Shown piece by piece: positions 1 to 56,354 of a DNA stretch of 64,000 nucleotides; position 1 is the first letter of the stretch; every line of letters starts with the position of its first letter. This DNA is from Letharia columbiana. Lineage: Eukaryota > Ascomycota > Lecanoromycetes > Lecanorales > Parmeliaceae. The position numbers were made by a program, and so were the translations under genes. Under the pieces are notes generated by a model that was not told the DNA's origin, made no database searches, and saw only the letters and a program-made list of their open reading frames with translations. The DNA lies in the NCBI RefSeq assembly GCF_014066305.1, contig NW_023501119.1, positions 62,001 through 126,000 of the forward strand, read 5' to 3'.

Positions 1-2
1 CT

Positions 3-3000
3 TATTCCACAACAAGTCGTTCATCGAACGCTCTGCGAGATTCGCGGCATTCCCGGAGAACACCCTTGATGCCTTTTACACGATCATACGCTACTCAAAC
101 CACGAATCCAAACCCTCCCTTTGGTAGAACCTCCGCCATTAGTTCTCCACCATTCCATAGTTGTTGCTTATATCGTTGCAGGTACCAAGAACAATTCCAA
201 TCAAACGCCATCAAAAGTTGCCCTTATCGGTAAGTGTGCAGACTCTCCCAAATCTCAGAGCTGCTTCTAATCGTAATTAGGTGCCAGAGGTTACACGGGG
301 CAAGGTATGGAGTGTTCCCCTCTAGTCGAGTCTGCAGTCGTAGCTGCAAGACATGCATCAAATGCATAGAACTCTTGGTGCTCTATATATGCTTCCTGAT
401 AGTGCCTCAGGACCCACCTTTCAATCTTGAGAAAGGAATGCTGATTGCGCACTTGTCATTAGCCTTGATCAACCTACTCAACTTGCACCCCTATATGGAC
501 CTACGGAGTGTAAGCGATTGCCCAATTGATCTCTCCGAGTTCCTCTTGTTCTAACTCCAGCGCAGGTCTCATCTCGTGAGCTTGCCGGAAGGCCACTGGT
601 GGGATACGAAAAGCGAGATATCACTTACGAGGTGCACACTGCCCACCTTGCCAAGTTGTTCGTTGCTGACAGTAATATAAAAGAATTTATCGCATGAGGA
701 TGTCAAAAAGGTATGTGTGCTTGTAGACTCTGGTTCCAGATTCGTCCACGCTCCTAGACAGAAGAGGAATGCTAATTTGCCCAGATGACAGATATCGACG
801 TGTAAGTCATCTGTTCCGGGCCATCGTATTTCACTCGAATGGCAAGGCTTTCGGTAGGAAAGTACGACATTGCCGGGACCTGTTCTACGACCTAGCCCCC
901 ATTCCGAAAGAGACTTGCTGACTCCGACATCGTTTAGGTGGGTTATGGCCGTAGGACTTCCCCTGCCCCAAGCTGCCTTATACCGACGTCTTTGGAAACA
1001 CAAGTCATGACTCCCATGCTCCCGTCACATGCTTTGTGGCTTCGGTTTGTGTCTCGAATGTGATTGCTGACCAGAGAACTCCACTAGCTTCCCAACGGAG
1101 TCGCGAAGCCTTGGATAGATTCCATCGAAGAAGCCAACGGCAACAGTTTAATCATCGATCTGAGCGCGTACGTAAATCTCCGATTCCCTTTTTTTCCACT
1201 CTACATCGAGCCTTGGGTTCACGAGACGTTTCCTTGAGCGCGAGATACCACTTATACTGTCCCGAACCTTCTCTACTCATGCACTTGCCCTGGAAACAGT
1301 GCTGACTTTGAATAGGGATTATCGGTTCAATCCTAACTGGACATATGGCTTGCCAGGTACGTCGACTCATGCTAGACTGAATTAGAATGAGACATGCTGA
1401 TTTTCCTGCGTAGAACTGGTGGACCGCTCGACCATTGCTAGAGCCAAGCGAATCTCAAATCCCGTCCGTCAAGCCCTTCTCACCCCTCATAATTGCTTCC
1501 TAAATCCAATATCTGTCGTGAACGAAAGAAGCTGACTACGAAATCTCTATAGGGTTGTTGTGAGTATACTGTTCAAGTTACAATCACCAAGGTGCTAAAC
1601 TCCATCAGATGCGACTGCTGCGCAATTAGGCATAGGTATTTCTCGTTCTAGCAGCGCTCCTGATTGCTCAATGCTCATCCAGTACAGCTCCTCTCCTCCC
1701 TTATATTGCCAAGGAACCAGCCGGCCCAACGATTTTTGGCGTATCTGGCTAGTAAGTATTTCCCGAGTCCATGTTGCCTCACTACCGGATCTTGGACCGT
1801 GAGACATGAGTTTGGAGTGTGAGCTTTACAGTTGTTTCATGATTCTAATTCTCAGTCTCGTGCTGAACACGTAATGCTGACTCCTACAGCTCTGGCGCTG
1901 GAACGAAGCCGAGTCCAAAGGTACATATTGACGCGTCATAACGAGAAACAGAACCCCCTTTATGTTAACGTTGTTTTTAGAATGACGTAGAGAATTTGAC
2001 CAACAAGTACGTCGTCAGAAGTCCGTCATTTTATGGGAACTAGGCTAAAGGACTGCAGTATTATACCGTACAGTACGTCCATATCTTGAAATGCAATACC
2101 TATCATGCGAGCAAAGACCCAATTTAAATTCCGGGACGATTCTCAGCTCCGATTCTCTGTTTCAAAGAAGATACGCTGACTCCAATTCCTACGTAGGCTT
2201 GACAGATCGTAAGCAATCGTGGCTCATGCTTACATGACCCGTCACTAAAGCGCCCTAGACGTCCACGAGCGAGAGATCTCGGAGCAACTTGGATGTTCTG
2301 TAAGGGCTCACCTCGAAATCTTGAAGCTGTAGCCAAACTTGTTGGTAGCAGGTCGCTGACCAGAGATTTTAGGTGTCATTCATTCCTCACGTGGCTGTTT
2401 GGGTGCGTTTTCCCTGGCGTCACTTGATTGCTTCCGAAGCTAGACCGTGCTGACGATGGGAATAGTTCCAAGGCATTCATGTAAATATACGGCCGTTTCT
2501 TTCCATTGACGCGTCACTGATCATCTCCCAAGCATTCCATTAACATCCCACTAACAAAGACCTTTACCTCCCGGGATATCCGAAACCTCTACCAGGAGAG
2601 ATACGAGGGGGAATCGCTCGTAAAGGTCGTAGGCGAATCTCCCTCTGTGAAGACGATCGCAGGTAGTCACGGGGTCGAAAGTACGTATACTCGGTGTCAA
2701 AGTTCCTTCATTCTTTTAATCTCGGATTCTCACTCTTGGGACATGCCGTGGGAGTGTATACTCTGCATGCATTGATTATGACTCGGCTTTCTATCGCAAA
2801 CAAGCAGTACTGACTTTCGAATAGTCGGCGGCTTTGGTGTACATTCTAGCGGCAAGAGAGTAGTGATCAACGCCACTATTGACAATCGTAAGACACGTCC
2901 TGCTCCTGAAATGTGTCCTAGACGCGAGTATCCGTCTCGAAAGAGGAATGCTGACCGCAAAATGGTGTAGTGCTGAAAGGCGCAGCTACGCAGGGTGAGC

Positions 3001-3351
3001 AGCCCTTCTTGTACTAATCCGCACCCCGAATTGAGTTGCAAGACACATTGTGGGATTGTAGTGACTCCCGCCACCGTCTTGGGACTCAAATCTTGATCTC
3101 AAAAAGAAAACTACTGATTTCAGAATTGCAGCTCTTCAAAATATCAACCTTGCCAGAGGATATTCAGAGTGAGTCTCCTCTAGCCCATAATCTCTTTAGC
3201 TAAAGCTTCTCGGGGGTCGCGGAACACGTTCCGGCACCCCACGCTCCAGACTTCTCTCGTCTCGCATGACAGATTGCTGACTGAAGCTCCATCTAGATAT
3301 GAAGGCATTCCGCTTTGTGAGTCCGATCGCGGCGGGAATATGAAGTTCTAG
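3..3351 (+). CDS. ARG5,6: N-acetyl-gamma-glutamyl-phosphate reductase half of ARG5,6 (5' partial, 26 exons in window)
   Basis: Arginine biosynthesis in the mitochondrion: NADPH-dependent reduction of N-acetylglutamyl phosphate. In fungi this enzyme is the C-terminal half of a kinase-reductase precursor; the kinase half lies left of the window. Exons read by frame and conservation: 3-123, 182-229, 281-304, 463-509, 566-631, 684-710, 785-801, 938-950, 1088-1167, 1316-1356, 1414-1463, 1553-1559, 1609-1635, 1688-1751, 1890-1920, 1981-2006, 2059-2072, 2198-2209, 2259-2299, 2373-2402, 2466-2480, 2533-2680, 2825-2887, 2971-2994, 3132-3168, 3297-3351. They total 1128 nt, 375 codons plus stop, with phase kept at all 25 junctions. 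Visible motifs: nucleotide-binding VALIGARGYTGQ, VMALPNGVAKPW, catalytic SNPGCYAT, SGYSGAGTKPSPK, FIPHVAVWFQGIHH and EYEGIP near the end. TRSYATQ in exon 1 could be the processing site between the two halves. About two thirds of this stretch is intron. Confidence 0.93.
1553..1559 (+). other. 7-nt micro-exon carrying the catalytic Cys codon
   Basis: GGTTGTT lies between introns 1464-1552 (donor gtccgt, branch GCTGAC, acceptor tatag) and 1560-1608 (donor gtgagt, branch GCTAAC, acceptor atcag). It supplies Gly, Cys and the first base of Tyr in the motif NPGCYAT, the nucleophile motif of ArgC-type reductases. Without it the frame shifts and the active-site cysteine is lost. Assigned from frame and motif continuity only. 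Confidence 0.85.
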
Positions 3352-4001: not shown

Positions 4002-5593
4002 CTACGATCCCTCCGCTAGCTTCAACAAGCCCTCCAGATTAATACTCTTTGGCCGCTCTATCGGCAGCCCCAATGCTCTGTCCCAGATTAGCTGCGCTAG
4101 CGGTCCCAGACCGCGCGAGACACCGAAGGTGGCGGTGTAGTAGAGCGTTTCGTGGAAGCCGTAGTGGTGGAATAGCACGCCAGAACTACTGTCCACGTTC
4201 GGAAAGGGATTCTTCGTCTTCCCGTGTTCCTTCAACACGCCCGGCGCTATCTCGCTATTCCGCTTCACGAGCTGGAAGACAGGATCTTCGGCGATCTCGG
4301 GGCGGGAGGAGGCGAACTTCATGAGGGCTTCGAAGCGGGGGTCGGGTTTTCGCAACACGGCGTGCCCGTAGCCGGGGATTACCTGGCCTGATTTCAGGGT
4401 TGACCAAAGGTAGTCTTTCACGTCGGCGTCGGTGAAGGAGGTCCCGATGTGTGACTGCATTTTTAGGATCCAGCGGAGGACTTCTTGTGCTGCGAGACTG
4501 TGGGACTGGCGTTAGCATCTGCTGAGTCGAGAAGTGAAAGTTGAAGGTTGAGGAGCATACCCGTGCAGTGGTCCGGCAAGACCTTGTAGACCGGCGCTGT
4601 AGCTGAGGAAGGGATCACTCAACGCGCTACCAACCAGATGGGTAGCGTGCGCAGAGACGTTGCCACCCTCGTGATCACCGTGTAAAGCAAGGTAGAGTCG
4701 TAGCAAGTCTTGGAAATTCTCGTTCTCCTTGCCGCCCTTGCCGAGCATGGCCGCGAAATTATAGGACCAGTCTTGCTCTGGATCTACCTGTGCTGGTAGA
4801 GACCCACCACCCTTGTAGCTGTTTTGGTAGATTTTGGCGGCTATCGTGGGGAGTTTGGCGAGCAGTGAGATACTGTCGTCGAATGTAGGTTCCCAGTAAT
4901 CGGCCTTGTTGACACCCTTCTCATACGCTTTCGCAAAAGCAGAGGTGTGATTGAGTGTAGAAACAGCGCAGGCAAATTGAGTCATAGGGTGCAGGTCCGT
5001 AGGAAAGCTATCTAGCATGTTCTCGACAAAGTTCGGCAGGGTGGATTTCTCAGCGAGTTCTCGAGAGAAGGCACGGATTTGTGATGTAGTGGGGACTTGG
5101 CCGGTCAGAAGCAGCCAGAACATGGCTTCGGGTAGCATTTCGGTGCCGGAGGTGCCTTTGGGCAGGACACTCTGGCAATCTTCGATCGTTTTGCCGTGGA
5201 ATCGGATGCCTTCGTTTGCGTCGAGGACGGATCCTTCCCATACCATTGCTTTAAGCCCTCTGCAATGCTTGTCAGACTGGCCGCAGGAGATAGTAGTGGT
5301 GATTGTTGTACCTCATGCCACCAAGCGTGTTCTCCACCTTGACTTCACCAATTGTCTTGCTGGCATGGCTCTTGACTTTTTTGAGAAGCTCGCGCTTTGC
5401 TGGTATGGCTTCTTTAAGGGTGGTTTTGAGGTCTGGTTCGGAGGCGGAGGAGTAGGTTCGTATCGAGTGGGCGATGGAAGATAAGAGTCTAGGCTGTCAC
5501 AAGCAAGGTCAGCATGAGCAGGATACTGCTCAATGGATAAAATACTTGTATTAGCACGGCAGCCCTTGGTGCTACCCTTGTCGTCGAGAGCAT
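4002..5593 (-). CDS. mcsA: 2-methylcitrate synthase, mitochondrial
   Basis: Condenses propionyl-CoA with oxaloacetate, the first step of the mitochondrial methylcitrate cycle. Exons on the minus strand: 5593-5546, 5493-5312, 5259-4561 and 4497-4002, giving 474 residues, normal for the family. The start gives an Arg/Ser-rich mitochondrial presequence, followed by [12 protein letters not shown] and [15 protein letters not shown]. Active-site blocks are visible: LAGPLHG (His), [15 protein letters not shown] (His) and [14 protein letters not shown] (Asp). Text such as [20 protein letters not shown] and [18 protein letters not shown] matches fungal McsA better than the Cit1 citrate synthases, and the divergent neighbour is the cycle's lyase. 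All three introns (52, 52 and 63 nt) have normal GT-AG ends. A true citrate synthase is the alternative; the two families are close and many share side activity. Confidence 0.85.
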
Positions 5594-6059
5594 GGCGCAG
5601 GTAAGTGCCCCAGGGATTGCGAGGTTTTGGGGGCGGTTTAGTAGTCTATAGGGGCATCAGTGGAGTCTGTGCCCGTTTGGAAGACTTTGAGAAGCTTGAC
5701 AATTGCAATTGATGTATGGAATTGAGGGAGCGATGCCCGGAATTAAGACTGTTATTGCTCCACCTAGGTGACGTTCCGCGGGCAAGCGGCGGTGCCGGAC
5801 CTCGGCCAAAAAACATATTTGTGGGGGAATTGGCCCATACAATTTGTCTTCGCCTCTCCAAGACCCCAAAGACGGCCTATACTCGCGAGGAACAGCCATC
5901 GAGTATGCAATTTAAAGTCTAGTTGGAATGGTTCGAGCGTCTCTCTGCCATCAAGTTCTAGTATCCGGCCATCATTACAAGCAATTCCCAGTCAATAGAC
6001 AGCTACAAAATTGCACAAGCATAGTCAAGATTCATAGGGTTGCTATTCCATCCTAGACA
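5594..6059. promoter_or_regulatory. shared divergent promoter of mcsA and mclA
   Basis: 466 bp between the start codons of two divergently transcribed methylcitrate-cycle genes, so it must hold both promoters and 5' UTRs. The arrangement suggests co-regulation, for example on propionate. I did not find a site I could name with confidence. Confidence 0.6.
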
Positions 6060-8135
6060 ATGCTTGGAACAGCTGCCAGAAGCCTTCCCAGGAAAGCTGC
6101 CCAGAGATGCATGCCCTCCTCCCCTATACTTTGCCTTCAGCCAAGACACACTGGTAGAGCACTGTCCTCCCATCTCCCTGCCGTCAAGCCTCCGCTGTCT
6201 ACTGCATTACCCTCGGACTCCTACCAGCTCCTTCCAACATCAGAGAAGAGCGGCGCCGCTGAAGACGCCCTCTTCATCCAAGAAGTGGAAGACGTCAAGC
6301 AATGGTGGGCCTCAGCCCGATATGAGGGTATTAAGAGACCATACTCTGCGGAGGATGTGGTCGGCAAGAGAGGGACACTGCAGCAAACATACCCGAGCTC
6401 TGTGATGGCGAGGAAGTTGTTCAGCCTTTTCAAAGAGAGGGCTGCCGTTGGGCAGCCTGTCCATACAAGTGAAAAGCCACCAGTGAGGCTTCTCGATCAA
6501 GAGGGCTGACAAACCGGTAGTGGGAGCCATTGACCCTATTCAAATGACCCAACAAGCTGTCAACCAGGAAGTGTTGTATATTTCTGGGTGGGCTTGCTCC
6601 TCTGTGCTTACCTCCACGAACGAGGTCTCTCCGGATTTCGGAGACTACCCGTACAACACGGTACCGAATCAAGTGCAGCGAATATTCAAAGCACAACAGT
6701 TGCATGATCGGAAGCATTGGGATGCAAGGAGGAAGATGAGCAAGGACGAAAGGACGAAGGCACCATACATAGATTATATGCGACCAATCGTTGCAGACGG
6801 GGATACCGGGTGAGGATCTGTGACATTGGCCAACGAGGACAGGATGCTGATATGACTTCAGACACGGAGGCCTTACTGCTGTTATGAAACTGGCCAAGCT
6901 TTTTGCGGAGAATGGTGCAGCAGCCGTACACTTCGAAGACCAATTGCACGGTGGCAAGAAGTGCGGCCACTTGGCAGGCAAAGTCTTGGTCCCCGTGGGC
7001 GAACACATTAACCGACTGGTCGCTACCAGATTCCAATGGGATCTGATGGGCTGCGAGAATCTCGTAATTGCTCGAACAGACTCCGAGTCTGGAAAGCTTC
7101 TCAGCAGCGCTGTAGACGTTCGGGATCATGAATACATCCTCGGTGTAGACGAAGACGCGGAGCCGTTGGCCGAGACTTTGCAAGCGATGGAGCTCCAAGG
7201 TACCACTGGAGTGGAAGTTGACCGTTATGAGGCGAAGTGGGTGAAGGAGCATAAGCTCATGACATTTGATGAAGGTAGGGGAAGCACCCTCCTCTCCAGA
7301 CCGAGTTCATACTCTGACCATCTTCAGCTGTGGTGAAACACCTTGAGTCGGAAGGTGCAGATCAGAGCAAGATCCTCCAGTACGGTGCCCAGGTGAGAAT
7401 GGATCGTAATCTCCCTCTATCAAGGCGACGTACTCTCGCAGCACAGTATACCAATTCTCCCTTGTTCTTTTCCTGGGACATTCCAAGAACTCGCGAGGGC
7501 TTTTACCACTACCGTGCGGGGTTAGCAGCAGCCACAAAGCGGGCAATCGAGTTCGCTCCGTACGCTGACTTGCTTTGGCTCGAGACTGCGGATCCGAACG
7601 TAGAGAAAGGTGGGAAGTTTGCAGGCGAGATCAGGAAAGCTCATCCTGGGAAGCAACTAGTTTACAATCTCAGCCCGTCATTCAATTGGATGGGCCAGGG
7701 CTTCAATGAAGCTTCCCTGAAGTCTTTCATTTGGGATCTTGCCAAACACGGGTGAGCACTGATATCTCTTCCCTATTTAGTGAGCAAAAACAGCTGATGT
7801 TGTTGCTCCTAGCTTCGTTCTGCAGCTGATCTCTCTGGCTGGTTTGCACTCTACCGCAGCAGTAACAGCAGAGCTTTCAAGAGACTTCAAGGAGGATGGC
7901 ATGCTGGCTTATGTGAAGCTGATTCAGAGACGCGAGAAGGAGCTCGGTGTGGACGTCTTGACTCATCAGAAGTGGAGCGGAGCGGCCTATGTTGACGGCA
8001 TATTGGGCGCCATCCAGAGCGGAAGCAGTGGAAGCAAGAGTATGGGTGAGGGAAACACAGAGACAGGTATATCAATCTCTTTGCGAACATCTTTATCTGT
8101 TGCGTACTGACATGTCTGTGTCCACAGGTTTCTAG
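6060..8135 (+). CDS. mclA: 2-methylisocitrate lyase, mitochondrial (ICL2/MclA type)
   Basis: Cleaves 2-methylisocitrate to pyruvate and succinate, the last step of the methylcitrate cycle. Exons 6060-6468, 6521-6809, 6862-7274, 7328-7751, 7813-8066 and 8128-8135 give 598 residues; the last exon holds only two residues and the stop. The N-terminus is Arg/Ser-rich and looks like a mitochondrial presequence. Family blocks: [39 protein letters not shown] (KKCGH catalytic signature), [39 protein letters not shown] and [20 protein letters not shown]. The text ATRFQWD and DPRDHE/DVRDHE-like matches yeast Icl2 and Aspergillus MclA, not glyoxylate-cycle Icl1. It is divergent from mcsA across 466 bp. 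All five introns are 51-61 nt with good branch sites. Confidence 0.9.
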
Positions 8136-9368: not shown

Positions 9369-9934
9369 GTGGGTTGTTTGGCCAGATGAGGATCACAATT
9401 CGAAAGCCCGTTGCTCAAAGGACGCATCAACGATTGCAGAAGGTCTTTCCTTTCAGTCCTCTCGTAATCAATAGAGAAATGTAGAGTTCTTGCATTCAAC
9501 CAGAGTTAATGGGTCAGTCTATTGGTCTACAAATGTGTGCGATGTTGTCTTGCTCTATCCGTAGTGCCCGCGGCTAGGAGGAACAGTTTGCCCGGTTGAC
9601 CGAAGCTGCAAGGAATTCCTGTGCTGCTGACGCACCCAAAAGTCCTGAGCCGAAGCAGCTGAAAATTTCCTGACCAGTGGCCCTTCCACATGCTCCAACT
9701 TCCCCCATTCCAACACCAAATTCTCTTTCTGAGGGTCGCTGGCTCACCCTCATATCTAACCTCCATATCCCTCTCCACTGCATCTTTGCAATATCCCACC
9801 CTACTCCCCTGAGGCTGCACGTCCGCGCAGCGTTAGGCCTCGATTTCCTACGGCCACAGCCTCGGAAAAATCAATTCCCCGCGCTCTGGAAACCCCGAAC
9901 TCGTACGACTCCATTCCTACACCACCAGCAGAGA
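9369..9934. other. intergenic region and 5' leader of the New1-like gene
   Basis: Upstream region of the ABC factor. The frame is open back to an ATG at 9677, but the extra ~86 codons are Pro/Thr/His-rich with no conserved text, so I treat them as leader. Confidence 0.5.
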
Positions 9935-47549: not shown

Positions 47550-48403
47550 TGTATAGATAATTTATTTAGCTATTATCTAAGCTCTAATAGAATATAGTAT
47601 ATCTATATTATATTCTAAATAGCATTAGAAGTAGCTATATATTTAATCTTATATATTAATTATACTATAGTCTTCTACTTAATAAATCTTTAATTAATTA
47701 ATCTATTATTTAATATTATAATTATTCTAGTCGTTAATTATATTATAGATATCTTATCGACTTAATTAATATCTAAATAGTCGAATAGTTATAGTATTAC
47801 TATTTTTATAATCTTAAAGACTATTTTACGTATTCTAGTCTTAGCTAAGTATTATAATATCTTTTTATATACTTACTAATATTAATAGTTTAAATTAAAA
47901 GAGAATATAGCTAGTTTATTAATAGTAAATACTAAATTCGATTATATCTAAGTAATTAGATAATTAATTTTCTTTAAGCTACTCTTAAATACGATAACGT
48001 TCGCTAGATTAGTTATATATATATTAGATATAGAGATAAGATAGTTATTTACATTTAATTCTATTAAGATAGATAAGATATAATACTTTTTTATATTATA
48101 GATTATGAGAATCTTATTAATAAATATAGATTAACTTATTTTAAATATTTTTATTAAGCGATTTCTTTCGATCTTTATACCTAGATAATATATATATAAA
48201 TCGAGATTTACGATATTAAATTATTCGTATAAAAGTCTCTTAGTCTAGTCAATTAATAATTAATTATTAATGATTTTAATATTATTAATATAGACGGCTA
48301 GAAAGATAATTTCTTCGTTTAATTAATAGAGAAATAGATATAAGTCGAATTATAAGTATATAAATTCAATTTTAAATAGAAACTCTATTAGCGTCTCGTA
48401 TTA

Positions 48404-49019
48404 CTTACGACTAGACTATTTTAGCTCGTATAATACTCTAAGTAATAAATAAACTCGATCTTAATCTAATTCGATAAAGCCTTTTAACTATTTTATATAG
48501 ATCTTATACTTAAGTTTTATATATAGAAATACTATTATAATATTAACTAAATCTACTTTCTAGTCGTAGTATATAGCTAAGACTAAGAGAATCTTTTATA
48601 TAATTAGCTTAATAATATCTAAAAAGGTTTTATTATAGTCGATATCTTCTTATTAAAGAAAGTCTTTAATAATATATCTAATCTTATAGCGTAGAATTTC
48701 GTTATTTACCTCTAGCTTCTTCTTATAAATCTATCTTTTCTTAAGAATAGTATAATATATTAATTTTAATACTAGCTTTTATATCTTTATTTTTTATAAT
48801 AAGTTTTATTACTTTTATATAGCGATTATTTATTAAAATACTTTAGAGCCGTTAATTACTTCTTTATAAATATAAGACTTAGTATCGAGTATAAGCGATA
48901 TAGCCCGTACTAATTTAATAAATTCCTTCTTTAAAATATCGAAATTAATTTATTTATTATTTTAAATAGTATTATAATTTTTTAATTTATTCTTAATACG
49001 CTCTAAGCGTTTTAATAAA
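48404..49019. repeat. copy 1 of a ~620-bp RIP-mutated segment
   Basis: Aligns with 50486-51105 over its whole length in direct orientation. Shared strings include AAATAAACTCGATCTTAAT, TATATATAGAAATACTATT and TAGCGTAGAATTTC, with mainly C/T and G/A differences. Probably a piece of a retrotransposon coding region on the minus strand; the family is not certain. Confidence 0.75.
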
Positions 49020-49285
49020 TTAGATATAAGAAAATTTAATATATTAGAAATAATATTCTTCTAATTACTTAATTTAAATAAATTTCGAAATAAAGTTAGC
49101 TTTAGAATTTTCTAGGTCTATAGACGGATTTTAGGCTGTGGTCTTAGAGTCTTCTCTAGATATATTTATTATCGTTTTACTATTTATAACTAATAAAGAA
49201 GAAGCTTCTAGAAATAGTAAAATTCTTCTAGCGATGGTAATAATATTTATAACGTTTTTATCCTCTAATATCTTACTTAGTGTTA

Positions 49286-50010
49286 CGATTCTATATCAAA
49301 TCATTACTTAGTAAGCGGAGAACACCACTACAATAGCCTATCATCTCCACTATATTAAGAAGTAAGAGGAGGAACTACAATAGGCAAATATGGAGAACCA
49401 CTACGGAGAACACTATGGAGAATACTACGGAGAAACCAAGCGGTAACAAAGCCACCATCGTCAAGAACACGGCTCAGCTCTCCAAGATCCCACGTCATAT
49501 GCTCTCCACGATTTCATATCAAATCATCATCTCCAGACGGAGAACACCACTGCAACTTGGCTTATCATCCCTACTGCATTAAGAAGCAAGAGGAGAAACT
49601 ACAACAGGCAAATGCGGGAGAACACTGCGGAGAACACTACGGAGAATACTACGGAGAAACCAAGCGGTAATAAGGCCACCATCGTCAAGAACACGGCTCA
49701 GCTCTCTAAGATCCCACGTTATATTAGTTATTTACTCAGTCAACTACTCAGCTAGCTATTTAGTCTGATACTCTACAAGAGGAGGAGCAAGAGAAAAACT
49801 ATAATAGGCAAATGCGGAGAACACTGCGGAGAAACCAAGCGGTAACAAAGCTATCATCGTTAAAAACATAGCTCAGCTCTCCAAGATCCCACGTTATATG
49901 CTCTCCACGATTCCACATCAAATTATCACTTAGCAAGCGGAGAACACCACTGCAACTTAGCTTATCATCCCCACTCACTTTAAGGAGTAAGAGGAGGAAC
50001 TACAATAACG
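49286..50010. repeat. less-mutated direct-repeat island (~220-bp unit)
   Basis: Related units begin at about 49286, 49509 and 49908, with a diverged partial unit at about 49773-49907. Shared strings: GCGGAGAACACCACT, GGAGAAACCAAGCGGTAA, CTCAGCTCTC(C/T)AAGATCCC and ATGCTCTCCACGATT. CA and TG dinucleotides are common here, unlike the flanks, so the island escaped most RIP or arrived later. Confidence 0.8.
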
Positions 50011-50067
50011 TTATAAGAGGAGGATCTACTACAACAATTATAGCCAATTAGGCTTCTGCAGAAGAAA

Positions 50068-50109
50068 CATCGAACGATATATATTTAAACGAATTGAAAT
50101 CGTTCGATG
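50068..50109. repeat. 11-bp inverted repeat with 20-bp loop
   Basis: CATCGAACGAT at 50068-50078 is matched by ATCGTTCGATG at 50099-50109. On the minus strand the string TGTTAGAG starts at 50123, as many LTRs do, but no second copy was found. Confidence 0.7.
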
Positions 50110-50451
50110 TCTTACTCTAACAGCTATTTTATTATTCGAAAGATTTCACTACGGCAGGAGATAATATGGGATTCACACCACTAATTAGTATATTATCTCT
50201 ATTTCTTTCCAATATTTCGATACTTCTTATTATAAGAACATAGCCTTTCTCTATTTCAATCCTCTACACTTAATATACCTTTCTAATTAGGCCTTAGCGC
50301 GCCTCTCTTCACACATATATACCTATATACTATATAGATTAAATCAATTTTATAATAGTGAAAGTAGGTCAAAAGACGACAGCTAGCAATTAGAGTTCGA
50401 TTTAACTTAGGGCTAGGGCTAAAATTTCATTTAACTTAGAAAAATCCAACT

Positions 50452-50470
50452 CCATGAATTTAATTCATGG
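50452..50470. repeat. 19-bp palindrome
   Basis: CCATGAATTTAATTCATGG is a near-perfect palindrome directly left of copy 2 of the 620-bp segment. Confidence 0.8.
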
Positions 50471-50485
50471 GCCTTTACTTATACT

Positions 50486-51105
50486 ATTTATAATTAGACT
50501 ATTTTAATTTATATAATATTCTAAATAGTAAATAAACTCGATCTTAATCTAATTCGATAAAGCCTTCTAGCTATTTTATATAAATCTTATACTTAAGTTC
50601 TATATATAGAAATACTATTATAATATCGATTAGATTTACTTTCTAATTATAGTATATAGCTAGAGCTAAGAGAATCTTTTATATAATTAACTTAATAATA
50701 TTTAAAAAGATTTCGTTATAGTCGATATCTTCTTATTAAAAAAAACTCTTGATAATGTATTTAACTTTATAGCGTAGAATTTCATTATCTACTCTTAGCT
50801 TCTTCTTATAAACTTATCTTCTCTTAAAGATAATACGATATACTAATCTTAATACTAGCTTTTATATCTTTATCTTCTATAGTAAATTTTATTATTTCTA
50901 TATAGCGATTATTTATTAGGATACTTTAAATTTATTAATTATTTCTTTATAAGTATAAGGCTTAGCATTGAATATAAGTGATATAGCCTACGTGTTAATT
51001 TAATAATAATCTTCTTTACGACATCGAAGTTAGTCTATTTATCGTCTTAAATAATATAATAGTTCTTTGATTTATTCTTAATTCGCTGTAAGCGTCTTAG
51101 TAAAG
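50486..51105. repeat. copy 2 of the ~620-bp RIP-mutated segment
   Basis: Direct-orientation partner of 48404-49019. The two copies flank the less-mutated repeat island. The divergence pattern between them (transitions) is what RIP on a duplicated sequence would give. Confidence 0.75.
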
Positions 51106-52926
51106 CAATAGTAGTAGCCTCCTTTAAAGCGGAATAATGTTAATTCGCTATCAAAGAGGTCTGTGTGGATGCTATCAAAAGCATTTTCTATATTAGTCAT
51201 TAATTTATAACCTAGAGTCTTCTTCTATTTCCCATAGGTGCATAGCTCATAAAACTGTCTTTTGATATTGTTTATGATTTTTATTTCCTCTATCATAGTC
51301 GATAGCCTAGTAACATTATCGAAATTTAAATAATTTAATGCTTAATGCTATTTAATAGCTATTATCTTTCGATAGTTAGCTTTCTTAATAATCGCGGCCA
51401 TAGCGATCTCTTTAGTTATTATAGCTTTAAATAATATAAGTCTTAACTTATAAAGTGTATTTATTAATTCTCTCTTAAGGACGATATCGTTATTATTATT
51501 ATAGACTCTTAAATAATCCTCCTTTTCAATATAAATAAGATTATTATATTAAAATATATCTAGAAATAATAGATTTATAAATAAACCTTCGAAAGTATTA
51601 TTTAACTATTATAAATATATTTTATACTCTTATATACTTCGTAATAGTCTCCGCCGCTATTATTAGATTTAAAAAAGCGGTTAAATATATTAACTTCGTT
51701 TTTAAGATTATTAAAAAGATCTTTAACGTAGTTAATAAGGCTAATAAGGCCCTTAAGACTAAAAAGACTCTTAAGACTATTAAGGCTAAAATACTCTCCC
51801 TCTCGTAAGAATATTCTTATATATACTAATATTATCGAGTATTATAAGCTTAAATTAGATAAATAAAACGCCTTTACTTATTATTAAAGTAGATCTTTAA
51901 GAATTAATAGCTTAGCTATTTAAGGTTTAAGAGAAGCGAAATAATCGCTATTCTTATAAGAGTCGGATTTATAAGTTATATCGCTATTATCGCCATTATA
52001 GTCGTAGTTATTATTATCGTTACTCGAATATATTAAATTCGAACTTATTTGACTCTAAGTCGAATTAGAAGAAAAGAAGAGAAATCCCCTTTCGTTATAT
52101 GAAAGATAAGAAGCCCTTTCTTAGTATTACTAAAAGATTTCAAAGTATAAATATTAAGTACTTTAAATAAATCTTCTTTAAGATCTTTAAGACTAAAAAT
52201 TTCGCTAAACTAGTCTATATATATACTATCTCGATTAAGAAGAATAAGAATATTAATAACTATAATTATATAATATATTATTTTTATATATACTCGATAG
52301 TCGCTAGTCGCTTTATATACGTTAGCGTAAAGAAAGACTTAAATAAAACTTTATATACGTATACTATTCGCTTACTACGGCTATTTATTATCTATAGATT
52401 TAACTTTATTCTCGCTTATTATCTCGTCTTTATTACTATATATATTTAGAATAATTAAGATAATTTTAAGATTTAAAAAGCGAACGATTAGAGCTATAGA
52501 GATTTTCTTATATTTAAAGAAACTTATATAAGTAATAGTAAGTTAAATATCGCTATGTCTAGCCTTAGTAAGCCTATTATTATTAAAGAAATTAAAATTT
52601 ATAAGAATTTTAATAGAGGTAGCTATTTTCGCGAGCGCTATATCTATTTATATATCTATATAATCTATTAGTAAAATTATTTAATAGATAAGTACCTTAA
52701 GGTCTTAAATCTAGCTATAAGTAGCTTTAATTATTTATTATTAGATAATTATATTATTAAGATAGAATAATTCTTAGAATACTTATAGATACTATAGTCG
52801 CTATAGTATATATCTAAGAAGTTCTTATACGCGCTATATAATCTACTAAACTCGAATTTACTTTATTAGAGATCGTTAATAGTTAATAATTAATTTAAAT
52901 AATTAAACGATTACTTAAATCTAATA

Positions 52927-54000
52927 TTTACTAAGACTATTTTAACTATTCTTCGAAAAGACGCTAAGATAGATTTTCGAGACTATATCTTAGTTTATTA
53001 TAATTAAAATTATCTATTAATACGTTAAATATTCTAAATACTATCGATAAATCTTTAAAAATAGCTTTAATAATATCGTCTAATCGAGGTTAACTCTTAA
53101 TATAAACTCTATTACGTCTATTCGCTACTCGATTTAATATCGAAATATAATAAAGATTAAAGACGAATTTATAATCTCTTATTTCTATACGACTATTTAG
53201 TTAATAACGATATTTAGACGAAGTAGAGCGTATTAAAATATATTATATATGATAACGTAGTAGTAATATTATTATAGAAAGGCTTAAGAATCTAATTCGT
53301 TAAAAGAGATCTTAAAGACGCTTTCAGATATATATTCGTCGCTATATCGAATTAATAACTACTTAATTTTAATTACGATAAACGCTATTAAAAAGAATAA
53401 TATCTATTATTCGAACTACGTATATTATTATTTCTATTTAATCTCTTTATAAAGATCTTTATTTAAATTTTAATCGCGATTCTTCTATAGAAAGTAATAC
53501 TTTACTATCTAAACGATTTCTTTATAATTCTTTTATTAGATAATAACGTAATTATATATATCTAATAATTTAACTAGCTATATAGCGAATTAGATCTTTA
53601 AATTAATTATATAAAGAATATTATAGATTTTATAGTCGAGTTTCTAGAAATCGAATTCGATAGTATTTATATATAGGCGAGATTTCTCTCGAATAAGCTA
53701 GCTAAAGCGAGAATTATAGTTAAAAACCTTCTAAAAAGAGTAATTATCTTATATTAGAAGCTCGAGTTAGCGATTAACTTTCTCTCTTTCGCTATTAAAG
53801 TCGTAATTTTAGAAAGAGTATTCTTAAGACGACTTTTTAATATCCTTTAAAGGTCTATAATAATTATATGAATTATAGACGATATAAGAGTAGACTTACT
53901 ATAGTAAAATATCTTTTTAAAGTACTAGAATAGCGTCGCCTTAATATATTACGTCGATAGTCGAGTTATATAATATATATAAATCGATATATCTAGAAAA
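52927..54000 (+). pseudogene. reverse-transcriptase relict (RIP-mutated)
   Basis: One forward frame keeps protein text through many stop codons. From 53299 it reads VKRDLKDAFRYIFVA, then a degraded aromatic/Leu-rich stretch. YLND at 53506-53517 stands where reverse transcriptases have the catalytic YxDD. Still in the same frame, LAINFLSFAIKVV starts at about 53764, followed by FLRRLF. DLKDAF...I.V and Y(L)DD with this downstream text is typical of a fungal RT family close to DIRS/tyrosine-recombinase retroelements. The frame runs at least 1 kb without an indel, so damage is by point mutation. Confidence 0.6.
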
Positions 54001-55769
54001 TTCGATATAGAAGGCTATATTCTCGACTATCTCGATTATATTTAATCGATTTAACTTAAAGACGTTTTTAGTATTAAAATAGTTATATATTATTATTTTA
54101 AAGATATATAATTTAAAGAAATAAAGGTCGTTTATTACGCGATAAAGCTATAACTATATTAGTTACGAGAATCTCGCTTAATTCTCTACTACGATAATAA
54201 TATATACGTTAATAAATTATATAAATCCTTTATATACGAGTTAGCTATAATCTTATTACGCGATATAGCTATATTAATAGCTACTTACAATATTATAATA
54301 ATATCTATTTAGATATCTACGAAGGTTAACTAGCTAGTTAATAATCTATTATATTTTTAATATTAAAAAATCGCTAACATATATCTATAGCTAAAAGGTC
54401 TTATATCTCCGCTAAAATAGGGCGGGATTTATTAGAATATTAATATAATTAGATTATACTATCTTAAGAGACCATACGACTTCTCTAATAAAGGCTTACT
54501 ATTAAAATTAAAAAGATATATATAACTTTAGTAAGATCTTATACGATCTATTACGCATTTATAGAGATTTAATCTCTTTTCTTAATAACTATAAATACTC
54601 TTACGAGCTAAATTATTAATCTAAGTACTCGCCGCGTTAAATCGAAGTCTATAAAGATATATCTTATTAGCCTTAGATTAGTCTATATAAATATAAGATT
54701 CGATAATCTCTTAGTATTTTATTACTCTTAGTTATAACGTATTATTATAAATAATCGATATCTTTATAGCGAAGTTAATATAAAAGAAAGGCGTTTAATT
54801 ACTAAGAATCTATTACTTTAAATTCTTTCTTATTTCGATAAGTTAATTTATACTAAGGCGACTCTATATATCTTCTTTTATCTCGTCTTCGCGGTATTTC
54901 TACGCGTAAATAAGTTTATTTATAATAAGCGAGATCTTTAATAGAAGAACTTCGGCGAATAGTTTCTTATACGTCGCTCGATAAGACTATTCGATAATTA
55001 TCTAAAACTTACGCTTTTAGCGTCTAAAATAAATCTATTTCGTCGTGAAATTATATTTACGATAGTTATATTAGACGATAACGTATATATAGTTAAAGTC
55101 TTACGTTATCTCTTTAAATAGAAAGACTTTATTTAATATATCGCTATTTTAATTAAGAGGCTTCTTCTTTACTAAAGAAATCGTTATTAATAATCTTCGC
55201 GAGATACTAATATTACTTAATATTAAGAGCTATTATTTAAGCTACTTCTTTTATAGAGAGGTTATAATATTAGTATATAACGCCGACCTTAGTAATAATG
55301 AGATTTAATTACTAGATCGTTAAAAGTTAGATTTCTATCGTCTATATATTATTACTTATTTAGTTTATATACTTAAAGTATTACTACGATATTAGTATCT
55401 TTTAGCCCGTTCGCGCTAGTACTATTAATCTCTACTACTTACTATAATAGATATTATTAGAAGTTCTTCTTAAGACCTTTACTCTCTTTAAACGACGTCT
55501 TAGATTTTAAGAGTTTTCTAGCGCTAAGAGATCTTTTTTAAATCATTTATATATCTAAAAAGATCTTAATTATTCTAATATTAAATATATCTAATTATCT
55601 ATCTATATATCTATTTATATATACGTTATTTTATATATAATCTTACTATTTACGAGTATTAATCGTAATAGTAGAATTATAAATTAATAAATTTATTATA
55701 AGATAGCCCATCCTGTCAGCGAGGCTCTTGACCGCACATCGTTTGTAAGGAGAAGTTTCATCAACTCAC

Positions 55770-56354
55770 CTTCGGAATGCCTGTGCTACCAGATGTAAAA
55801 AGGATATAAGCCAGATTATTTGGCCTCACATCCACCCGGAGAGGCTCACGTTTGGCCGCCCCAATCTCGTCACAGCAAGTTTGCCCTACTACAATAACAT
55901 GTTCGCTCATATTAGCAAATACTGCCGCTTGCTGAGTGGATGTGAGGATGACGGAGGGCCTGATCAGGGAGAGGATGGTCTTGACCCTCTGCACAGGGGA
56001 ACAGGGAATGGGCACGAAAGCCGCGCCAGCTTTCAAGACCGCAAGCATGGCAACGACGGTCCACATAGACTTTTCGAAGCATACTGGGATGATGTCCTCT
56101 GGCTTGATGCCATGATGGACTAGATGACTTGCAAGTCCGTTTGCATAGGAGTCCAAATCCCCATAGGTTAGTGCACCCTCTCTTGAGCGGACCGCTTCAG
56201 CATTAGGCTGGTCGCGGACCTTTTCCTCAATCAAGTGGTGGACACAGGCTTCGATTGCTGGAGGAACGAATTGGTTCCATTTTCGAATCTGTTCCAGGTC
56301 GGCCGAGGAGGCTTCATTGGCAACCTCGTCAGGGGCAGCTTCTACAAGACCCAT
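55770..56354 (-). pseudogene. NRPS N-terminal part: start of adenylation domain
   Basis: Minus-strand exon of 195 codons from ATG 56354. It holds the first adenylation motifs: ACVHHLIEEKVRDQPNAEAV, LTYGDLDSYANGLASHL, MLAVLKAGAAFVPI (A2) and YILFTSGSTGIPK (A3, ATP-binding loop). It ends at a good donor (gtgagt, 55769-55764) in phase 0. The intron runs past a GCTGAC branch-like site at about 55721 and then into the AT-rich block with no credible acceptor before it. The A4-A9 core (roughly 0.8-0.9 kb expected) is absent, so the gene is broken. The continuation is at 47549-45855. Upstream text looks like a leader, so this may be the true start. Confidence 0.85.

What the first reader, a model, noticed from the sequence alone, without database searches (positions are those of the whole stretch)
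3..3351. Hyper-intronised housekeeping gene: 25 introns in ~1.1 kb of coding sequence
The reductase half of ARG5,6 is cut into 26 exons of 7-148 nt, and introns (49-158 nt) make up about two thirds of the span. Neighbouring genes have one to five introns. All junctions keep frame, nearly all introns carry a CTGAC/CTAAC/CTGAT branch-like site, and phases are mixed (about 9, 11 and 5 for phases 0, 1, 2). That density is far above what Dothideomycete genes normally show and suggests a burst of intron gain limited to this gene.
Basis: partly seen in the sequence, partly recalled or inferred. Interest (0 to 1): 0.9.

Follow-up and report, generated by a model that had tools for sequence, protein, structure and literature searches.

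The report
Arginine gene riddled by invading introns
In a lichen fungus, one ordinary arginine-making gene is split by 36 introns, and many of these look like worn copies of a mobile intron family scattered through the genome, so the gene may show how genes fill up with introns.

Summary
The gene is fungal ARG5,6 (arg-6). The window holds 25 GT-AG introns in 1,128 nt of coding sequence (22 per kb); the part left of the window holds 11 more. Spliced, 37 exons give an intact 901-aa enzyme; no second copy was found. No transcripts of this species were available. The organism is not a Dothideomycete: assembly statistics match the lichen fungus Letharia columbiana.

The long introns (117-158 nt) share internal sequence and belong to a dispersed, hairpin-forming intron family: a 17-base motif has 370 genome sites within two mismatches, against 2 for the reversed control; 34 of 41 complete copies fall into three families; two splice precisely in an intact RidA gene. 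They resemble introner-like elements. ARG5,6 is locally exceptional: 10 recognisable members in 5.9 kb, against 9 in the other 248 kb examined. In a set of less related fungi the reductase half reads as one open frame, so most introns were probably gained; three positions appear shared with Alectoria.

Not found in print in my limited searches: introners in a lichen fungus, or one housekeeping gene so full of them. How they copy themselves is inferred.

The parts
1..3351 (+). 3' part of ARG5,6 (arg-6): end of the linker and the whole N-acetyl-gamma-glutamyl-phosphate reductase half; the gene starts 2,562 nt left of the window (L007:7439)
124..181 (+). intron 12, 58 nt, short class
230..280 (+). 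intron 13, 51 nt; several other ascomycete ORFs have a short unrelated start and then GARGYTG, as if an intron ended at this site
305..462 (+). intron 14, 158 nt, introner-like (model E 1.2e-5)
510..565 (+). intron 15, 56 nt
632..683 (+). intron 16, 52 nt; apparently shared with Alectoria fallacina, whose annotated protein carries 17 extra residues at this site
711..784 (+). intron 17, 74 nt
802..937 (+). intron 18, 136 nt, introner-like (E 8.3e-5)
951..1087 (+). intron 19, 137 nt, weakly introner-like (0 of 200 shuffles reach it, but E 0.25)
1168..1315 (+). intron 20, 148 nt, introner-like (E 0.0034)
1357..1413 (+). intron 21, 57 nt
1464..1552 (+). intron 22, 89 nt, partly introner-like (E 0.013)
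1553..1559 (+). 7-nt exon that holds the whole codon of the Cys in NPGCY (active-site Cys of ArgC, recalled)
1560..1608 (+). intron 23, 49 nt
1636..1687 (+). intron 24, 52 nt
1752..1889 (+). intron 25, 138 nt, introner-like (E 9.8e-13)
1921..1980 (+). intron 26, 60 nt
2007..2058 (+). intron 27, 52 nt
2073..2196 (+). intron 28, 124 nt, doubtful introner remnant (2 of 200 shuffles reach it; E 0.11)
2197..2208 (+). 12-nt exon; with its neighbours it encodes SLTDHVHE; apparently missed by the prediction P0001
2209..2258 (+). intron 29, 50 nt
2300..2372 (+). intron 30, 73 nt
2403..2465 (+). intron 31, 63 nt
2481..2532 (+). intron 32, 52 nt, ends in AAG
2681..2824 (+). intron 33, 144 nt, introner-like, nearest family F3 (E 2.9e-12)
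2888..2970 (+). intron 34, 83 nt, short introner-like copy (E 1.5e-7); position apparently shared with Alectoria
2995..3131 (+). intron 35, 137 nt, introner-like (E 1.3e-6) with a possible remnant hairpin (z -1.4)
3169..3296 (+). intron 36, 128 nt; in the long class but no hit to the outside model

Best explanation
ARG5,6 of Letharia columbiana is a working gene, single-copy as far as searched, that has been hit repeatedly by introner-like elements: hairpin-forming spliceosomal introns that multiply through the genome and insert precisely, in the sense direction, into coding sequence. Shown by sequence: the intron-exon structure; a dispersed family of introns sharing sequence and hairpin; membership of at least 10 and perhaps about 15 of the 36 ARG5,6 introns; no target-site duplications; an open reductase frame in a set of less related fungi. 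Inferred: splicing in the living cell; that the remaining short introns are older, shrunken copies or ordinary introns; that copying goes through the excised intron RNA (reverse splicing or a similar route); that insertions were spread over time, some before the split from Alectoria.
For: The 13 long introns share internal sequence beyond splice signals (mean pair score z = 6.6, 0 of 100 shuffles). A model built only from copies outside this gene scores 15 of 36 introns above all 200 shuffles that kept the donor hexamer and the last 20-30 nt; 10 reach E < 0.01 in a 254-kb scan. Motif sites: 51 exact against 0 reversed; 370 against 2 with two mismatches. Nineteen other places match one copy at 72-85%, over up to 140 of 148 bases; 34 of 41 complete copies form three families. 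Family consensuses fold strongly (z -6.2, -7.4, -7.1). No target-site duplication. The introns resemble genome copies more than each other (81.9 against 67.2). Two copies splice precisely in an intact RidA gene. Twenty-four chosen proteins on contigs of at least 8 kb read through 21-30 of the intron positions.
Against: No RNA evidence from this species. Neither the 16 short introns (z 0.5) nor the 7 middle ones (z 1.0) resemble each other; 14 of the 16 short ones give no hit to the outside model. The long ARG5,6 introns have mostly lost the hairpin (mean z -0.41). Whole-intron DNA searches with two ARG5,6 introns found only themselves. Intron 36 gives no hit; intron 28 is doubtful; introns 2, 7 and 9 score only 3-6 bits. 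Families are 69-84% alike on average, not near-identical. The comparison with relatives rests on protein records, not DNA; that these are unspliced calls is inferred, and the list was ranked by score, which favours uninterrupted frames. The outside model is not fully independent: its first five copies were found with a model of these introns, and the rest by motif or match to those.
Confidence: 0.85

Rival explanations
1. Ancestral intron richness: ARG5,6 was always full of introns and other fungi lost them.
For: Intron 13's site seems shared with other ascomycetes, introns 9, 16 and 34 lie at positions apparently shared with Alectoria, and the list of relatives favours uninterrupted frames.
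Against: The 24 chosen records, two of them 82-84% identical, read through 21-30 of these positions, so nearly complete losses would be needed; many of the introns belong to a dispersed family.
Confidence: 0.05
2. Local gain: introns multiplied inside this gene by duplication, without a mobile family.
For: Within the window the recognisable members are confined to this gene; introns 9 and 19 have their best match inside the gene.
Against: All 13 long introns are on average closer to the 41 copies elsewhere than to each other; different introns score best with different families.
Confidence: 0.04
3. On the copying step only: the elements are DNA transposons whose ends happen to be splice sites, as proposed for most non-ascomycete introners.
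For: The consensus is nearly palindromic, with complementary stretches near both ends.
Against: No target-site duplication in 41 copies; the copies whose context I looked at lie sense in coding sequence (RidA 2 worked out; nitrilase-like 3, L022 2 and L016 3 by eye).
Confidence: 0.2
4. Shared motifs reflect common splicing signals of this genome, not descent.
For: The best conserved stretch is the branch-site region.
Against: Shuffles that kept the donor and the 3' end are exceeded; DNA matches run to 140 of 148 bases; a hairpin-arm motif away from the splice sites has 85 sites against 4 reversed, at least five elements counted on both strands.
Confidence: 0.03

Closest known systems
Introner-like elements (ILEs) of Dothideomycetes (Collemare et al. 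2015, PMC4457414; van der Burgt et al. 2012, recalled)
   Same: Sequence-similar spliceosomal introns in many unrelated genes, several families per genome, decay towards ordinary introns, sometimes two in one gene
   Different: Different class of fungi; copies are older (family means 69-84% identity); one gene carries at least 10 recognisable copies among 36 introns, where the parts of the paper seen report genes with two
Internally symmetrical sister introns and stwintrons of Hypoxylaceae (Fekete et al. 2021, PMC8469720, abstract)
   Same: Intron-wide inverted symmetry, proliferation at new sites, no short flanking duplications
   Different: No nested donor-interrupted stwintron was looked for; symmetry is imperfect; sequence relation not tested
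Introners in diverse eukaryotes (Gozashti et al. 2022, PMC9860276, passages)
   Same: Genome-wide families that create introns; fungal members said to lack target duplications
   Different: The paper says fungal introners lack terminal inverted repeats, whereas the consensus here has complementary stretches near both ends; its species lists and supplements were not seen
ARG5,6 / arg-6 of other ascomycetes
   Same: Same domains and similar length
   Different: In the 24 records chosen the reductase half reads as one frame (a list that favours such records); here it has 25 introns in the window

Membership tests
Introner-like elements | Many sequence-similar intron copies in unrelated genes | tested here: met
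   370 motif sites against 2 reversed; 41 complete copies, 34 in three families; RidA by Pfam; nitrilase-, transporter- and aldo-keto-like genes by my reading of translations
Introner-like elements | Near-identical copies showing recent multiplication | tested here: inconclusive
   F1 mean identity 0.84, best pair 0.905; F2 and F3 mean 0.69
Introner-like elements | Functional spliceosomal intron with GT-AG ends and branch site | tested here: met
   By sequence only: frame and domains intact after removal in ARG5,6 and RidA; no RNA
Introner-like elements | Stable predicted secondary structure (recalled) | tested here: met
   Consensus z -6.2, -7.4, -7.1; per-copy means -1.9, -3.8, -3.0; the ARG5,6 copies, mean -0.41, do not show it
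Introner-like elements | No target-site duplication | tested here: met
   Three permutation tests on 41 copies, none significant
Introner-like elements | No terminal inverted repeats (a property reported for fungal introners in PMC9860276, not a definition) | tested here: inconclusive
   Consensus ends pair in the fold; no repeat search on single copies was made; Hypoxylaceae introns have such repeats (PMC8469720, abstract)
Introner-like elements | Insertions newly gained against relatives | tested here: inconclusive
   Reductase half open in the 24 records chosen, protein level, biased list
DNA-transposon introners | Target-site duplications | tested here: not met
Stwintrons (Hypoxylaceae type) | Internal intron splitting the donor of an external intron | not tested
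   No search made; one RidA element lies 1 nt downstream of another intron

The most novel reading that the evidence does not exclude
ARG5,6 is a true insertion hotspot, close to saturation: introner RNAs of several families kept entering this one transcript, most densely in its 3' half, until exons shrank to 7-14 nt, because something about this gene (abundant or long-lived pre-mRNA, an open RNA-DNA hybrid, or tolerance of splicing load) favours capture. The gene would then record many successive gains in one lichen lineage and could be read as a time series of intron birth, shrinkage and hairpin loss.
Probability: 0.35. Interest if true: 0.8.

Novelty: new member of a known kind. Interest (0 to 1): 0.62.

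Why it matters
How new spliceosomal introns arise, and why some genes fill with them, is a long-standing question. This gene reaches 13.3 introns per kb of coding sequence, 22.2 in the window part. The highest fungal density named in one survey is 4.5 per kb, a genome mean (PMC8476143, passage), so a single gene is not directly comparable. The source family is still recognisable in the same genome, so gain, ageing and shrinkage can be compared. It would also extend introner-like elements to lichen-forming fungi; one study found introners in 35 of 1,367 non-aquatic species (PMC9860276, passage).

Tried and rejected
Searching the genome with whole ARG5,6 introns 35 and 6 found only themselves: diverged, not unique, as later motif searches showed. 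RNAalifold on the first intron alignment gave no pairs; the hairpin showed in one copy and in family consensuses. Percent identity of ARG5,6 introns to family consensus was dropped as uninformative, since shuffled introns score the same (median 0.79 against 0.78). A sequence-only Infernal model R1 was built but never used in a search. A test of whether ribosomal RNA genes carry related introns got no answer. A draft splice model had one junction off by a base and was corrected, so the phase and stop columns for introns 12-36 are not used. In the nitrilase-like gene one marker was a base short, so the joined frame broke there. Pseudogene, assembly artefact and second copy were considered and not supported.

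Full report
What is there. The window is G000:C84:62001-126000 of a 52,243,142-base, 161-contig genome. Contig C1 has 2,188,364 bases. Table 4 of PMC9146135 (passages seen) gives Letharia columbiana 161 contigs, 52.2 Mb and a largest contig of 2,188,364, so I take the organism to be this wolf-lichen fungus. The best named protein match is Alectoria fallacina, 91%. It is not a Dothideomycete.

Gene structure. Hand splicing on the conserved protein gives 37 exons and 36 introns, from L007:7439 to window 3351, 5,913 nt, coding 901 residues, all introns GT..AG. In the window: 25 introns, 2,221 nt, against 1,128 nt of exon; phases 9/11/5. Thirteen of 37 exons are 30 nt or shorter; the smallest, 7 nt at 1553-1559, holds the whole Cys codon of NPGCY (that this is the active-site Cys is recalled). 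Retention of 34 of 36 introns would bring a frame shift or an early stop. Introns crowd into the 3' half: 22.2 per kb against 7.0 (binomial p = 0.001, KS p = 0.0008).

Is the model right? Pfam finds AA_kinase, NAT, Semialdhyde_dh and its dimerisation domain. P0002 (901 aa, longest contig 3,155 nt) and P0003 (900 aa, 5,062 nt), 93% and 91% identical, have no gaps around 36 of 36 junctions. Their contigs are shorter than the 5.9-kb gene, so they may be cDNA, but intron-poor genomic DNA of a relative is not excluded. P0001, listed without a source as the tool does for window proteins, but on a 1,493,254-base contig, differs in 5 residues, four of them at the 12-nt exon (SIALD against SLTDH). P0002, P0003 and P0005 read SLTDH, so I take the 12-nt exon as real. 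A genome search with the reductase part gave six matches, all exons of this locus.

The introns are related. Twenty-three introns are 49-89 nt and thirteen 117-158 nt. Interiors of the 13 long introns, without donor and branch-to-acceptor, resemble each other (mean pair score 77.7 against 67.7, sd 1.5, in 100 shuffles; z 6.6); the 16 short (z 0.5) and 7 middle introns (z 1.0) do not. A model of the 13 found five full or near-full copies in L016 and L022, two of the 11 arbitrarily placed stretches on other contigs.

A dispersed family. The 17-mer AATGCTGACTCCGAAAT has 51 exact sites, 0 reversed, and 370 against 2 with up to two mismatches. Among the 51 exact sites two same-strand pairs lie within 1 kb (my reading). 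L022:356-503 matches 20 places including itself, the other 19 at 72-85% (20 candidates were scored). I fetched 31 stretches covering 32 of the 51 exact sites, and 9 of the 19 DNA matches; 40 of 40 fit the model, which is no independent proof as they were chosen by motif or match. With five copies from L016 and L022, 41 complete copies (4 of 40 dropped for unclear ends) form F1 (12, mean identity 0.84, consensus acceptor AAG), F2 (10, 0.69), F3 (12, 0.69), two pairs and three singles. A hairpin-arm motif of F3 has 85 sites against 4 reversed, at least five elements counted on both strands; an F1 tail has 66 against 0.

Structure. Consensus introns fold into one long hairpin with z -6.2, -7.4 and -7.1; per-copy means are -1.9, -3.8 and -3.0. 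In F2 and F3 the stretch after the donor (TTTCGGAG) pairs with the branch region (CTCCGAAA). The ARG5,6 long introns average z -0.41, so the hairpin has mostly decayed; intron 8 keeps one (z -3.2; z -2.8). Covariation was weak: 1 of 25, 1 of 25 and 5 of 20 pairs with compensatory types.

ARG5,6 introns belong to it. A model built only from the 41 outside copies scores introns 1, 2, 6, 7, 8, 9, 14, 18, 19, 20, 22, 25, 33, 34 and 35 above all 200 shuffles that kept the donor hexamer and the last 20-30 nt (15 of 36; introns 2, 7 and 9 score only 3-6 bits); introns 3, 21 and 28 are reached by 1-2 shuffles; 18 introns have no hit. In the 254 kb held, 10 ARG5,6 introns reach E < 0.01 and 9 places outside do (L008 1, L016 3, L022 2, L023 3; antisense echoes of the hairpin not counted), none elsewhere in the window. 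Five of those nine are in the model by construction.

Not local duplication. With ends removed, the long introns score higher to genome copies (81.9) than to each other (67.2); 13 of 13 have the higher mean to genome copies, 11 of 13 the higher best match (41 targets outside against 12 inside). No target-site duplication in 41 copies or in ARG5,6.

Other genes. L068 holds a RidA gene of 127 codons (PF01042, E 3.6e-39) with four introns, one F1 and one F2; the F2 copy lies one base after another intron, leaving a 1-nt exon. L070 holds, by my reading, a nitrilase-like gene with three copies; my join there kept the frame only in parts. So other genes carry several copies; none of the few I looked at approaches ARG5,6.

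Gain rather than retention. From the 120 best of 8,000 proteins I chose 24 with lgn, ena or jgi sources and contigs of at least 8 kb (P0127 kept though it also carries an ncbi source; P0147, P0192, P0215 and the other records with ncbi or uniref sources left out). All 24 align across 21-30 of the Letharia intron positions. Two cautions: the list is ranked by score and so favours uninterrupted frames, and that these calls are unspliced is inferred from intron-like residues at ORF ends, for example P0144, P0149 and P0177. P0152 carries 62 gap letters, apparently retained introns. P0144, P0149, P0131 and P0127 have a short unrelated start and then GARGYTG, the site of intron 13, so that intron may be old. 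Alectoria's annotated protein has its indels at introns 9, 16 and 34 and in the glutamine run of the linker, and diverges after the last; the extra residues at 16 resemble our intron 16 read in frame. So some introns seem to predate the split from Alectoria.

Mechanism. Most likely: excised introner RNA is put back into a transcript or gene, perhaps by reverse splicing, in sense, leaving no duplication; copies then lose the hairpin and shrink to about 50 nt. The copying and shrinking steps are inferred. Whether ARG5,6 is a preferred target or simply tolerant is open.

Known relatives. [quoted passage not shown] abstract and parts of the text read). Hypoxylaceae sister introns have 45-55 nt terminal inverted repeats and no flanking duplications (PMC8469720, abstract and outline). 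Gozashti et al. [quoted passage not shown] Letharia and lichens are not named in its main text, and its supplements and species lists were not seen. Searches joining introner terms with lichen, Dothideomycetes, fungi, Lecanoromycetes or Letharia listed no paper on introners in lichen fungi; two listings were capped (12 of 325, 10 of 88) and the library is partial. Cladonia grayi averages 3 introns per gene (PMC6652019, passage).

Noticed in passing
L068:2212: A RidA gene seems to have a one-nucleotide exon where an F2 element lies one base downstream of another intron's acceptor; the spliced frame is intact.
   Followed up: partly
L034, L040, L041, L045, L050, L052-L054 (family F1): F1 elements end in CATCAAG, an unusual AAG acceptor; in RidA the frame is intact with it.
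   Followed up: partly
window 48001-56000: Block of 23-29% G+C between flanks of 44-57%, like a RIP-degraded repeat island (label is my guess).
   Followed up: no
L016, about 5366-7672: Amidophosphoribosyltransferase-like gene (my reading) with three elements within 1.2 kb and possible in-frame stops; may be a decayed second copy.
   Followed up: no
L023:3251-3653 and 9812-9905: Three weaker F2-like matches on the minus strand; gene context not examined.
   Followed up: no
window 2197-2208: Prediction P0001 seems to miss this 12-nt exon and replaces the conserved LTDH with other residues.
   Followed up: yes
window 230-280: Several ascomycete ORFs show an intron-like start right before GARGYTG at this intron's acceptor, so this intron may be ancestral while later ones are gained.
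   Followed up: partly
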